64,000 nucleotides of DNA, taken from contig JAFVFN010000006.1 in assembly GCA_017475405.1 (NCBI GenBank), positions 62,001 to 126,000 on the forward strand, given 5' to 3'. Positions 3,368 through 55,517 of the stretch are shown here, one piece after another (position 1 is the stretch's first letter; every line of letters starts with the position of its first letter). The position numbers and the translations under genes were made by a program. Below the pieces are notes generated by a model. That model was given only the letters and a program-made list of their open reading frames with translations, made no database searches and had not been told where the DNA came from. The stretch comes from Elusimicrobiaceae bacterium. GTDB lineage: Bacteria > Elusimicrobiota > Elusimicrobia > Elusimicrobiales > Elusimicrobiaceae.

Positions 3368-3416
3368 AAATTTCTCCTTTTCCTTTTTCAACTCTCTATT
3401 ATGAAACCCATAAAGA

Positions 3417-3603
3417 ACGGCTGTCATGCCAAGCTTCACCAAAGCCCCAAGCACAACAGCCGTAGTTTCCTGCACAAAGCAGGAAACATTCGGCACAGTC
3501 AGGGCTCGAGACCTAACCGTACCTAAATCGGCTATTTTTGGACTTGGTGAAGCGTTTGGACTTTCCATACGGCTCCGTATTCTTTATACGGTTCCAAAAA
3601 CAG
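3417..3603 (-). promoter_or_regulatory. Structured pilin leader RNA element, copy A
   Basis: This 187-nt leader ends 49 nt before the pilin start. P1: CTGTTTTTGG with CCAAAAATAG. P2: CCGTAT with ATACGG. P2b: GTATGGA with TCCAAAC (one mismatch). P3, a pseudoknot joining the P1 loop to the P6 loop: GCTTCACCAA with TTGGTGAAGC. P4: GGTACGGTTAGG with CCCTGACTGTGCC. P5: GTTTCCTGC with GCAGGAAAC. P6: ACGGCTGTTGTGC with GCATGACAGCCGT, followed by TCTTTATG. The unpaired core AGCCGATTTAGGTAC is shared with the other copies. Which transcript uses it and what it senses are unknown. Confidence 0.8.
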
Positions 3604-3635
3604 ATAAATTGTAATAGCATTGTAACAAATTTTGC

Positions 3636-15640: not shown

Positions 15641-15646
15641 ACAAAC

Positions 15647-15674
15647 ATTATACTAATCTTGGGGGAAGTGTCAA
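15647..15674 (-). promoter_or_regulatory. Promoter of ndk, leaderless layout
   Basis: On the minus strand TTGACA (15674-15669), a 16-nt spacer and TATAAT (15652-15647) are followed by six bases and the ATG. It is the best-matched example of the -10/6-nt/ATG pattern in this window. Confidence 0.75.
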
Positions 15675-15719
15675 ACAAATTCGCACTCGCTACTAGGAGA
15701 ACATTTATTTTGTTCAATT

Positions 15720-16223
15720 CTATGGTAACCGAAAACAGGTATATTCTCCTAAATAAGGACAAGAAACAGCTTTTCCAAAAGTTTTGCAAATTTTCATAGA
15801 TTTACTATCTGCATTGTGGGCTTCGCAATACATCGTATCGTCAGTTAAGGAATATACAATATACCATCTACCATCATCCTTAGACTGTCCCTGTCCTGTT
15901 CTTGCTGCAAATACACGCTCATTTTTTATATTCTTCACTTGCCCCAAAGAAAGATACCAATAGTTCTGATGGACCTCTATCCCTCTATTGCTTCCCAAAA
16001 AATCTATATCCAAATCTGCAAATGAATTGGTATATTCCCCATTAGCAAGATAATATACTTTTTCTGCATCAGCTAAAGCCTTCACCTGTGTAATGGCCTC
16101 AGAGGCATGTGCCTTTTCCACCGCCAATTGATATTGCGGTAACGCCACGGCCGCTAAAATTCCTATTATAAGCACAACTACTAAGAGCTCTATGAGTGTA
16201 AATGCTTGTTTATTTTGATACAT
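15720..16223 (-). CDS. Type IV pilin-like protein (pilE-like), copy 3
   Basis: The 167-residue product has the leader MYQNKQA and site A|FTLIE (Ala at -1, Glu+5), then [19 protein letters not shown]. The family motif VYYLANGEYTNSFADLDIDF follows; the distal half is variable and ends with MYCEAHNADSKSMKICKTFG and a further Cys pair. AAGGAG lies about 11 nt before the ATG. Unlike most copies it has no structured RNA leader; it uses a promoter with a twelve-T spacer, shared with the pilin at 39746. It lies upstream of ndk on the same strand with no clear terminator between. Confidence 0.9.
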   Translation of the reverse strand: MYQNKQAFTLIELLVVVLIIGILAAVALPQYQLAVEKAHASEAITQVKALADAEKVYYLANGEYTNSFADLDIDFLGSNRGIEVHQNYWYLSLGQVKNIKNERVFAARTGQGQSKDDGRWYIVYSLTDDTMYCEAHNADSKSMKICKTFGKAVSCPYLGEYTCFRLP

Positions 16224-16267
16224 TTATTTCATTCTCCTTATATTATGATTTTTATCCCTATAAAGAG

Positions 16268-16295
16268 AAAATATCAAAAAAAAAAAATGCGTCAA
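16268..16295 (-). promoter_or_regulatory. Pilin promoter with T12 homopolymer spacer, copy 1
   Basis: On the minus strand: TTGACG, then CA, twelve T, GA (16-nt spacer), then TATTTT. From the T-run through CTCTTTATAGGG the sequence is identical to that before the pilin at 39746. Homopolymer spacers of this kind vary in length by slipped-strand mispairing in known phase-variable promoters. Confidence 0.55.
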
Positions 16296-16351
16296 GCGAA
16301 ATTTTAGGCGCAAGTTTTCTACGTTATAACAGCGCGTGTTTCAAAAATATG

Positions 16352-16357
16352 TATAAT
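16352..16357 (+). promoter_or_regulatory. -10 box of the lpxB operon
   Basis: TATAAT lies 17 nt before the lpxB ATG. No clear -35 is seen. AAGG follows 8 nt before the ATG. Confidence 0.45.
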
Positions 16358-16374
16358 GTAAAAAAGGTACGCGT

Positions 16375-20756: not shown

Positions 20757-20772
20757 GTTAATACAATTTATT

Positions 20773-20967
20773 CTGTTTTTGGAACCGTTTAAGAAACGGT
20801 GCGCTTTGGAAACAAACGCAGGATTGAAGACCAAAAACAGTCGTTTTAGGTACATAACAAAGAGAATTGCAAGCTCACTGCTATGTACTGAATGTTTATC
20901 GCTTTTTTGTGATAAACTACGGCTGTTATAACCAGGGCACTTCAATCCTCCTGCGAGTAGCAGCCGT
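20773..20967 (+). promoter_or_regulatory. Structured pilin leader RNA element, copy C
   Basis: This 195-nt leader ends 41 nt before the pilin start. P1: 20773-20782 with 20831-20840 (CTGTTTTTGG / CCAAAAACAG, perfect). P2: 20784-20790 with 20794-20800 (ACCGTTT / AAACGGT). P2b: 20801-20808 with 20813-20819. P3 pseudoknot: 20821-20829 with 20940-20948 (GGATTGAAG / CTTCAATCC). P4: 20849-20856 with 20882-20889. P5: 20894-20900 with 20911-20917 (GTTTATC / GATAAAC). P6: 20919-20925 with 20961-20967 (ACGGCTG / CAGCCGT), then TTTTATT. It is the most diverged copy, so its preserved pairing is the strongest evidence for the fold. Confidence 0.85.
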
Positions 20968-21008
20968 TTTTATTGGATTTTATAAACAGAAAATATAAGG
21001 AGAAGAGG

Positions 21009-38576: not shown

Positions 38577-39764
38577 ATGAAAATCAAGCGGCTTTTTCTT
38601 ATTTTATTTTTGCTTAACCTGCTTAACTACATTGACAGGCAGGTGCTTTATGCCGTTTTCCCGTTGCTTCAAAACGATTTAGGATTAAATGATTTGCAAC
38701 TAGGCACCCTGGCCTCTGCCTTTATGCTGATTTACATGTGCTACGCCCCTGTCATAGGGTACTTGGCAGATCGGATGAACCGACCTAAACTGATTGCCCT
38801 GAGTGCTCTTCTTTGGAGTGGAGCCACCCTGGCCTGTGCAACGGCTAAAAACTATGTTTCTTTGCTAATTCCGCGGGCATTGATTGGCGTAGGAGAAGGC
38901 GGGTTTACCACCATCGCGCAGCCCTTTTTGGCAGAGCATTATCCCAAAGAAAAGCACGCTTCTTTGTTGGCCATCTTCGGACTGGCGCTTCCCGTTGGCA
39001 GTGCCCTGGGGTATGTGCTAGGCGGTGTAGTAGGAAAGCACTGGGGTTGGCGTATTGCCTTTATGGCGGCCGGGATCCCCGGCGTATTTTTAGCTATATT
39101 GGCCTGGGTTTTTTTAAAAGACAAGTCACGCGAAATCCAAACTGTACGACCTACTTTAAAAGATTATTTCCCCTTATTTAAAAACAAACCGTTTTTAAGT
39201 GTATGTTTTGCACAGGCCATGAGTACATTTGTCATGGGAGGGCTGTCTGCGTGGATGCCCATGTATTTACACCGTTATTTACATGTAGATGCCGCGCAGG
39301 CAGGCCTGCAATTTGGCATTCTGGTCATTGTATGCGGAGCAGCCGGTACCTATCTGGGCGGTAGAACAGCGGCCTGGCTACTTACACGTACTCAAAATGT
39401 CTATTATAAACTGATCGCAGGTTGTTTTTTGGCGACACTTCCTTTTTGTTGGCTGACACTCTCTATGACACATACACTTAGCGTACTGACTTGTTTGGGA
39501 ATAGCACTTATTCTGCTGTTCATGCCGACAGGAGCCATTGCAGCAGCCTTGGTAGATACTACGTCACAAAATATTCGTTCTATGGCGTTTGCCGTAAATA
39601 TTTTTATTATCCATTTACTAGGTGATGCGATATCACCTACACTCGTAGGGTTGGTATCTGATATGTGGAGTTTAAAAATAGCAGTATTTTGTGCCAGTTT
39701 AATGCTTGTGCCAGGGGCTTGGGTAAGTATACGTACCCAAAAAAATCAATTAATTACAAAATAA
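38577..39764 (+). CDS. MFS transporter, Spinster-like
   Basis: The 395-residue protein has 12 predicted TMs. NYIDRQVLYAVFPLLQNDLG in TM1, GYLADRMNRPKLIALSALLWSG as the MFS signature between TM2 and TM3, and PRALIGVGEGGFTTIAQPFLAEHYP are features of the Spinster-like branch of MFS. The substrate is unknown; Spinster homologues carry lysolipids or sphingosine phosphates in eukaryotes, and bacterial relatives are diverse. No Shine-Dalgarno sequence is clear. Its last 19 bp overlap the end of the convergent pilin at 39746. Confidence 0.82.
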   Translation: MKIKRLFLILFLLNLLNYIDRQVLYAVFPLLQNDLGLNDLQLGTLASAFMLIYMCYAPVIGYLADRMNRPKLIALSALLWSGATLACATAKNYVSLLIPRALIGVGEGGFTTIAQPFLAEHYPKEKHASLLAIFGLALPVGSALGYVLGGVVGKHWGWRIAFMAAGIPGVFLAILAWVFLKDKSREIQTVRPTLKDYFPLFKNKPFLSVCFAQAMSTFVMGGLSAWMPMYLHRYLHVDAAQAGLQFGILVIVCGAAGTYLGGRTAAWLLTRTQNVYYKLIAGCFLATLPFCWLTLSMTHTLSVLTCLGIALILLFMPTGAIAAALVDTTSQNIRSMAFAVNIFIIHLLGDAISPTLVGLVSDMWSLKIAVFCASLMLVPGAWVSIRTQKNQLITK

Positions 39765-40270
39765 TTACCGACGGCCCAACTATAGTGATCCCAACCTGTA
39801 AACAAAATACCTCCCATACTTTGGCAAATAGATTTTACGCTTTCGTTCTTCTTGCCGCTACTTCCTAAATGACAAAAAAATTTACTGCCACTATCATTTA
39901 CTCCGTGTTTTTCACGATAAAAATTGAATTCAAAATTTGGCATATTGGCATTTCCTGTATGAGCAGCACAATAATTTATTGTGCAGGTATAGACATAACT
40001 GTTCTCCGGTAACTCTTCTCCAGAATCCTCTATCAAACCACTGGGGACTTCTATATCCAACTCACTAATATCTGCTGTATGCTCTCCATTTGCCAAATAA
40101 TATACTTCTTGCGCTTGGACAATAGTTTTTAACATGGTTAAGGCCTCTGTCGCACGGCTCTTATAAACCGCTTTTTGATACTGAGGAACCGCTATGACCG
40201 CTAAAATACCTATGATGAGCACAACTACCAAAAGCTCAATTAATGTAAATGCTCTTTGATTTCTTTGCAT
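39746..40270 (-). CDS. Type IV pilin-like protein (pilE-like), copy 5
   Basis: The 174-residue product has leader MQRNQRA and site A|FTLIE, then [23 protein letters not shown]. The motif VYYLANGEHTADISELDIEVP follows; distal variable region has YTCTINYCAAHTG and the C-terminal pair FFCHLGSSGKKNESVKSICQSMG. GGAG lies 8 nt before the ATG. The stop is inside the convergent MFS gene by 19 bp, with no terminator between. Like the pilin at 15720 it has the T12-spacer promoter and lacks the structured leader. Confidence 0.9.
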   Translation of the reverse strand: MQRNQRAFTLIELLVVVLIIGILAVIAVPQYQKAVYKSRATEALTMLKTIVQAQEVYYLANGEHTADISELDIEVPSGLIEDSGEELPENSYVYTCTINYCAAHTGNANMPNFEFNFYREKHGVNDSGSKFFCHLGSSGKKNESVKSICQSMGGILFTGWDHYSWAVGNYFVIN

Positions 40271-40307: not shown

Positions 40308-40335
40308 AAAATATCAAAAAAAAAAAACAATGCAA
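40308..40335 (-). promoter_or_regulatory. Pilin promoter with T12 homopolymer spacer, copy 2
   Basis: On the minus strand: TTGCAT, then TG, twelve T, GA (16-nt spacer), then TATTTT and CTCTTTATAGGG. Spacer length, T count and the sequence downstream are the same as at 16268-16295, whereas the -35 region differs. Confidence 0.55.
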
Positions 40336-49992: not shown

Positions 49993-50087
49993 AAGCGGAG
50001 TTTTCGTCTAAGAAATTATATCAAATTGCGGACTATCCTACTGAACAGAATTTATGTTATAATAAAAAAGAAGTAAAAAATTTGAAT

Positions 50088-50271
50088 CTATTTTTGAGCC
50101 GTATAGAGAATACGGGATTGCTTCGCAAGAAGTACTCAGGTAAGTCAGAAATAGCCGATTTAGGTGCAAAATGGCGACGGTCATTTTGTGCCAAGTGTTT
50201 CCTACCCGCAAGGGCAGGAAACTACGGCTGTTATGTTGGGCATCTTACCTGAGGTCTGACGTAGCAGCCGT
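50088..50271 (+). promoter_or_regulatory. Structured pilin leader RNA element, copy E
   Basis: This 184-nt leader ends 42 nt before the pilin start; TATAAT lies at 50058-50063. P1: CTATTTTTG with CAGAAATAG (one G-U). P2: CCGTAT with ATACGG. P2b: CTTC with GAAG, loop GCAA. P3: CTCAGGTAAG (50135-50144) with CTTACCTGAG (50244-50253). P4: GGTGCAAAATG with CATTTTGTGCC. P5: GTTTCCTACCC with GGGCAGGAAAC. P6: ACGGCTGTTATG with CGTAGCAGCCGT, followed by CATTTTAG. Core AGCCGATTTAGGTGC. Confidence 0.82.
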
Positions 50272-50313
50272 CATTTTAGATACCTCAAGATAGAAAAAAG
50301 AGAGGTAAATAAA

Positions 50314-55228: not shown

Positions 55229-55283
55229 TAAAATTATACAGTCAAAAAAACAATACTTATGATATAATGTAAGTACAATTTAA

Positions 55284-55480
55284 CTGTTTTTGAATCGTAT
55301 TAAAGAATACGAGTTAACTTACAAAAGTTATACACAGAGGTCAAAAACAGCCGAATTAGGCACAAGATAAAAGGCTTTATAACCCTGATATTTTGTGTTG
55401 AGTGTTTGTTACTTGCAAAAGTAACCAACCACGGCTGTTATGTTTAGAGACTCTCTGTGTACTCTAGGTGTGGCAGCCGT
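55284..55480 (+). promoter_or_regulatory. Structured pilin leader RNA element, copy F
   Basis: This 197-nt leader ends 37 nt before the pilin start. P1: CTGTTTTTGA with TCAAAAACAG (perfect). P2: TCGTATT with AATACGA. P2b: TAACTT with AAGTTA. P3: TACACAGAG (55331-55339) with CTCTGTGTA (55453-55461). P4: GGCACAAGATA with TATTTTGTGTT. P5: GTTTGTTACTT with AAGTAACCAAC. P6: ACGGCTG with CAGCCGT, extended to 11 bp with wobbles, followed by TCTTTTATT. Core AGCCGAATTAGGCAC. Confidence 0.83.
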
Positions 55481-55517
55481 TCTTTTATTGCAAAAACAGG
55501 AATTGTAAGGAGAAATT

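What the first reader, a model, noticed from the sequence alone, without database searches (positions are those of the whole stretch)
16268..16295. Pilin promoter with a T12 spacer, possible phase-variation switch
Minus-strand TTGACG, a 16-nt spacer made of CA, twelve T and GA, then TATTTT, upstream of pilin 3. Homopolymer or dinucleotide runs in the -35/-10 spacer change promoter strength by slipped-strand mispairing in known phase-variable genes (for example Bordetella fim, Haemophilus hif, Neisseria porA). Here the downstream gene is also a surface-type pilin.
Basis: partly seen in the sequence, partly recalled or inferred. Interest (0 to 1): 0.72.

Follow-up and report, generated by a model that had tools for sequence, protein, structure and literature searches.

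The report
Fixed-length T-tract promoter of pilin genes
The run of twelve Ts is real, but it is a fixed part of a promoter shared by about 90 pilin genes in this gut Elusimicrobium and kept at nearly constant length across its genus, so it looks like a selected promoter element and not an on/off switch.

Summary
The genome (uncultured Elusimicrobium-type, 1.68 Mb) has at least 150 pilin-like genes, and about 90 carry this same promoter. T12 occurs 99 times genome-wide, almost all in that context. Of 91 copies read, 82 have the same 25-nt CTTG...GATA block (16-bp spacer), 5 are one base longer and 4 are short or broken. The tract hardly varies while the flanks do, and the coding starts differ at 54% of same-residue codons. 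Relatives keep the 16-bp spacer with T11 plus a longer flank, or with A11 instead of T. Two orthologous pairs between species are T12/T12. This favours a selected A/T-tract spacer over a slippage switch; short-term slippage in cells could not be tested (no reads). Nine relatives have ndk next to lpxB with no pilin between. In passing: about 80 other pilins carry an undescribed ~200-nt structured leader RNA with a private pseudoknot in nearly every copy read, and the two 5' modules are scattered at random over the pilin tree.

The parts
16268..16295 (-). Promoter core of pilin 3: -35 TTGACG (16295-16290), CA, T12 (16287-16276), GA, -10 TATTTT (16273-16268); spacer 16 bp, TG extended -10
   Evidence: same block in about 90 paralogous promoters
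16234..16239 (-). Ribosome binding site AAGGAG
   Evidence: sequence; position conserved before the ATG of paralogues
15720..16223 (-). Pilin 3, 167 aa, prepilin type ([19 protein letters not shown])
   Evidence: Pfam N_methyl PF07963 E 2e-8 and TIGR02532 above cut-offs
40308..40335 (-). Second copy of the promoter in the window: TTGCAT-TG-T12-GA-TATTTT
39746..40270 (-). Pilin gene behind the second copy (174 aa)
15647..15674 (-). ndk promoter TTGACA-N16-TATAAT: neighbouring housekeeping promoter with the same 16-bp spacing but no homopolymer
   Evidence: conserved in relatives
15641..16374 (.). ndk-lpxB intergenic region holding the pilin-3 unit; 65-112 bp and without a pilin in nine relatives
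   Evidence: exact ends of the insertion not determined

Best explanation
This is a housekeeping (sigma-70 type) promoter of a fixed architecture that this Elusimicrobium lineage uses for its very large pilin family: CTTG-type -35, then a spacer of 16 bp filled with 11-12 T (or, in sister species, 11 A), then an extended -10 of the form (G)NTANNNT. Shown here: the repeated architecture, its near-exclusive link to pilin genes, the constancy of spacer length and the purity of the tract in spite of old divergence of the genes. Inferred: the tract is kept by selection because the stiff, overwound A/T-tract DNA sets how RNA polymerase bridges the -35 and -10 (16 bp of A-tract, at about 10 bp per turn, has nearly the twist of the usual 17 bp), giving these promoters a common strength or a common response (for example to supercoiling, temperature or a DNA-binding protein). 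Slippage must happen and produces the minority of +1/-1 copies, but these are mostly removed, so the tract is not primarily an on/off switch.
For: About 90 copies: T10-GATAT 93 times genome-wide, control 0; 99 exact T12 runs genome-wide. In 635 kb, chosen around pilin genes, 90 of 95 T runs of 9 or more lie in this context, counting four pilins and one exported protein whose start the first filter missed; the only other T12 is the tail of an intrinsic terminator. Length: 82 of 91 with the 25-nt block, 5 at +1, 4 shorter or interrupted. Tract columns differ in 0.002 of pairwise comparisons, against 0.216 in the -35 part, 0.226 just downstream and 0.659 upstream. 54% of same-residue codons in the first 28 codons differ synonymously, and the most alike pilin bodies share only 65% identity, so there is no recent copying. 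One copy has C plus T11 with the total unchanged, and relatives have T11 with a 3-nt flank or T12 with a 2-nt flank for the same 16 bp. A-type promoters TTGACA-AATC-A11-C-GATAAT keep 16 bp too: 66 of 71 in G011, 26 of 28 in G032. The -10 is TA...T in all aligned copies. A neutral random walk fits the 90% only with about 0.2 or fewer accepted slips per copy.
Against: The block could be kept alike by gene conversion instead of selection. +1/-1 variants are not rare in some genomes (G011 T-type 13 of 78; G047 7 of 33; G004 A-type 5 of 9). No expression data; the structural role of the tract is inference. Why an uninterrupted, mutable tract is preferred over a mixed A/T spacer is not explained by spacing alone.
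Confidence: 0.66

Rival explanations
1. Phase variation: slipped-strand mispairing changes the T number, moving the spacer from 16 to 15 or 17 bp and switching or grading each pilin, as in the Mycoplasma hyorhinis vlp genes. With about 90 such tracts, every cell would carry its own pilin set.
For: Right place in the promoter, right kind of gene family (many surface paralogues, each with its own tract), uninterrupted tract kept pure, +1 copies in 5 of 91 and a few short ones, +1/-1 copies in relatives. Precedent: vlp, maa2 and vmm spacers (PMC2268961, PMC10502178).
Against: Length is nearly constant over paralogues and species where a free switch should scatter it. Where the flank is longer the tract is shorter, so the sum is held. 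mutS is present. A vpma T-tract at the same position in M. agalactiae was shown not to vary by slippage (PMC2268961).
Confidence: 0.17
2. Homogenisation: recombination between about 90 near-identical 5' ends keeps overwriting the promoter, so the constant T12 reflects gene conversion and not selection on the tract.
For: The 5' modules have been exchanged among pilin genes: promoter type against leader type is random on the pilin tree, 54 changes against 53.9 for shuffled labels; among 29 reciprocal best pairs 18 are mixed. Contigs often end in these repeats (places).
Against: Sequence within 10-20 bp on both sides of the tract differs at 22% of sites, and the coding start is diverged at synonymous sites; conversion would have to be confined to about 14 bp. 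Different species with different flanks keep the same spacer.
Confidence: 0.12
3. The T-tract is a binding site for a dedicated regulator or alternative sigma factor of the pilin genes, and the -35 resemblance is secondary.
For: Near-exclusive use at pilin genes plus one exported protein; the -35 hexamer varies (TTGACG, TTGCAT, TTGACT, TTGACA) while the tract does not.
Against: Sister species use A in place of T on the same strand at the same place, which a sequence-specific contact would hardly tolerate; -35 CTTG and -10 TA...T are as invariant as the tract.
Confidence: 0.05

Closest known systems
Mycoplasma hyorhinis vlp promoters (poly-A between -35 and -10)
   Same: Family of surface-protein paralogues, each with its own promoter carrying an A/T homopolymer in the spacer (PMC10502178, PMC2268961)
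   Different: vlp tracts change length and switch genes on and off; here length is nearly constant over some 90 paralogues and between species, and the family is more than ten times larger
Mycoplasma agalactiae vpma promoter T-tract
   Same: T homopolymer immediately upstream of the -10, shown not to generate variation by slippage (PMC2268961)
   Different: A single promoter moved by site-specific recombination; here about 90 fixed copies
Helicobacter pylori sabA T-tract rheostat
   Same: T-tract changes DNA shape and RNA polymerase binding; replacing T by A or C at equal length changes expression (PMC4081817)
   Different: That tract lies outside the spacer, next to UP-like elements upstream of the core promoter, and varies in length between strains
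Bordetella fim, Haemophilus hif, Neisseria porA promoter repeats
   Different: C, TA or G repeats with recorded length variation; none recorded here
Campylobacter/Helicobacter housekeeping promoters (T-rich stretch before an extended -10; from memory)
   Same: T-rich DNA directly upstream of TGNTANNNT
   Different: Those are general housekeeping promoters without a -35; here the -35 is conserved and the promoter is nearly restricted to pilins

Membership tests
Phase-variable promoters with a homopolymeric spacer (vlp type) | Homopolymer between -35 and -10 of a sigma-70-type promoter | tested here: met
Phase-variable promoters with a homopolymeric spacer (vlp type) | Surface-protein paralogues, each with its own tract | tested here: met
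Phase-variable promoters with a homopolymeric spacer (vlp type) | Tract length varies between loci or strains | tested here: not met
   82 of 91 equal, 5 at +1; two orthologous pairs equal; minority +1/-1 in relatives; no isolates or reads
Phase-variable promoters with a homopolymeric spacer (vlp type) | Expression follows tract length | not testable with these tools
   no expression data
H. pylori sabA-type rheostat | Tract upstream of the -35, outside the core promoter | tested here: not met
   tract lies between -35 and -10
Sigma-70-type promoter | -35 and -10 hexamers at 16-18 bp, conserved over copies | tested here: met
   TTG and TA...T invariant at 16 bp; neighbouring ndk promoter also 16 bp
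Type IV pilin-like proteins | Prepilin N-terminal methylation motif | tested here: met
   whether pilus subunit or pseudopilin was not resolved

The most novel reading that the evidence does not exclude
The genus runs its pilin arsenal (up to 150 or more genes per genome) as a combinatorial system: pilin bodies are re-paired during evolution with two interchangeable 5' modules, a fixed-length A/T-tract promoter or a structured leader RNA that carries a private pseudoknot code in nearly every copy. In that system the homopolymer is a selected promoter element held constant against its own mutability.
Probability: 0.35. Interest if true: 0.8.

Novelty: new variant of a known kind. Interest (0 to 1): 0.5.

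Why it matters
A homopolymer in a promoter spacer is commonly read as a contingency switch. Here a natural set of about 90 copies in one genome, and several hundred in relatives, shows the same kind of tract held at constant length and purity over old divergence. This makes the question of what an A/T-tract spacer does for a promoter directly testable, and warns against calling phase variation from one genome. It also opens a view on how a gut bacterium with over 150 pilin genes controls them.

Tried and rejected
Orthologue of pilin 3 at the lpxB locus of relatives: none; the site is empty. Same-species contigs in viral contigs: none. Conserved 3' end of the pilin units (terminal repeat, mobile element): none found. 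Rfam match for the promoter region or the leader RNA: nothing credible. A second -10 (TATAAG further downstream) was considered; the TA...T at 16 bp is the conserved one over the genus. A literature search on A-tract spacers gave nothing usable. A paper on Elusimicrobium pilin genes was looked for and not found in the library.

Full report
Observation. The minus strand reads TTGACG-CA-T12-GA-TATTTT at 16295-16268, 45 nt upstream of the ATG of a 167-aa prepilin-type protein. One T12 is not surprising by itself, but a second T12 in the window (40316-40327, minus) stands in the same context, followed by the same GATATTTTCTCTTTATAGGG and by another pilin.

The genome. The window is G000:C16:62001-126000 of a 1.68-Mb draft genome. 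Named relatives at the lpxB locus are uncultured Elusimicrobium and Elusimicrobiaceae, many from rumen metagenomes. A protein search gives at least 150 pilin-like genes (the scoring stopped at 150 of 255 candidates). I fetched 572 kb around them and found 171 prepilin starts. 86 have a T run of 9 or more just upstream (class A), and 79 of the other 85 have the inverted repeat of a leader RNA (class B).

The tract is part of a shared promoter. T10-GATAT occurs 93 times in the genome and its reversed control never; exact T12 occurs 99 times. In the fetched 635 kb (chosen around pilin genes, hence not a random sample) T runs of 9 or more number 95. Of these 86 precede a recognised pilin start, and the four or five further promoter copies precede pilins with variant motifs or one 295-aa exported protein without a Pfam match. 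The only T12 outside this context is the tail of an intrinsic terminator. So the promoter is close to a pilin-family signature.

Length and purity. From CTTG to GATA 82 copies have 25 nt (spacer 16 bp), 5 have 26, and 4 are shorter or interrupted (L027, L032, L033, L046; I removed GGTA-type chance matches by eye). The tract columns differ in 0.2% of pairwise comparisons. The -35 segment differs in 21.6%, the 16 bases after the block in 22.6%, and the bases upstream of it in 65.9%, that is, they are unrelated. The genes are old: 54% of same-residue codons in the first 28 codons differ, and the most similar pilin bodies reach only 65% identity. A random walk of slips would leave 90% at the original length only if about 0.2 or fewer slips per copy had been accepted; homopolymers of this size usually slip far more often than single bases mutate (general knowledge). 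Hence something holds the length, and something else holds the T identity.

The sum is held, not the T count. In G011 the block is CTTGACATCG-T11-GCTA, with one more flank base and one T fewer: 65 of 78 at 25 nt, 6 at 24, 7 at 26 (my count of the list; context). Copies in which a flank base became T, or a T became C, keep 25 nt. G047 has 26 of 33 at 25 nt. Sister species also have A-type promoters, TTGACA-AATC-A11-C-GATAAT, again 16 bp: 66 of 71 in G011, 26 of 28 in G032, but only 4 of 9 in G004 (my counts). Two orthologous pilins between species (97.5 and 97.6% identity) have T12 on both sides. The downstream parts of these promoters are quite different between species, so the architecture, not the sequence, is the conserved thing. 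A neighbouring housekeeping promoter, that of ndk, also has 16 bp, so 16 bp is a normal spacing here.

Interpretation. I read the tract as a selected A/T-tract spacer of an ordinary sigma-70-type promoter. The structural role (twist and stiffness of A-tract DNA compensating for a 16-bp spacer) is inference. In H. pylori, tract composition at constant length changes RNA polymerase binding (PMC4081817), though at another place in the promoter. In M. agalactiae a T-tract next to the -10 does not slip to any visible effect (PMC2268961), while the vlp, maa2 and vmm spacers of other mycoplasmas do switch (PMC2268961, PMC10502178). The data cannot exclude slippage within populations: an assembly shows only the majority length, and +1/-1 copies exist. 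mutS is present.

How the gene came here. In nine relatives ndk and lpxB are neighbours with 65-112 bp between them and no pilin (no pilin in any of those loci). The pilin-3 unit was therefore gained at this spot in the window's lineage or lost in all the others; gain is the simpler reading. No conserved 3' end or terminal repeat marks the units.

5' modules are exchangeable. On a tree of 161 pilins the two 5' types need 54 changes, against 53.9 for shuffled labels; well-supported branches alone force 11 (quick tree, many weak branches). Of 29 reciprocal best pairs, 18 differ in type. The promoter is thus not inherited with the pilin body. This would allow homogenisation by recombination as an alternative cause of constant T12, but the flanks next to the tract are too diverged for that to be the main cause.

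Verdict. Observation confirmed; the phase-switch reading is not excluded but not favoured. New variant of a known kind (homopolymer-spacer promoters), interesting mainly for its number, its constancy and its gene family.

Noticed in passing
window 20771-20971 (+), 50086-50277 (+), 55282-55486 (+), 3412-3605 (-) and about 75 further copies in the genome: About 80 pilin genes have a ~200-nt structured leader RNA: P1 CTGTTTTTGGA/TCCAAAAACAG enclosing two hairpins, three more helices, the last a terminator-like hairpin before the RBS (fold z-score -7.6). 54 of 55 have a 7-nt or longer exact complement between the P1 interior and the last loop (mean 9.9 nt, permuted partners 3.9), different in each copy shown. 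No Rfam match.
   Followed up: partly
90 genomes of the family: The outer helix pattern of this leader is found in 56 of 90 genomes of the family, reversed control 0; whether all lie before pilins was not checked.
   Followed up: partly
G000, 161 pilin genes: Promoter type and leader type are distributed at random over the pilin protein tree, as if 5' modules were swapped among genes.
   Followed up: partly
   Followed up: partly
window 15641-16374: Pilin 3 lies between ndk and lpxB, which are direct neighbours without a pilin in nine relatives.
   Followed up: yes
L191:1006-1893 (-), G000:C10: The one non-pilin gene found behind a T12 promoter encodes a 295-aa protein with a signal-peptide-like start, without a Pfam match.
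   Followed up: partly
G004: A-tract promoters in this genome vary in length much more (26-30 nt) than in its relatives; a place to look for real slippage or for decay.
   Followed up: no
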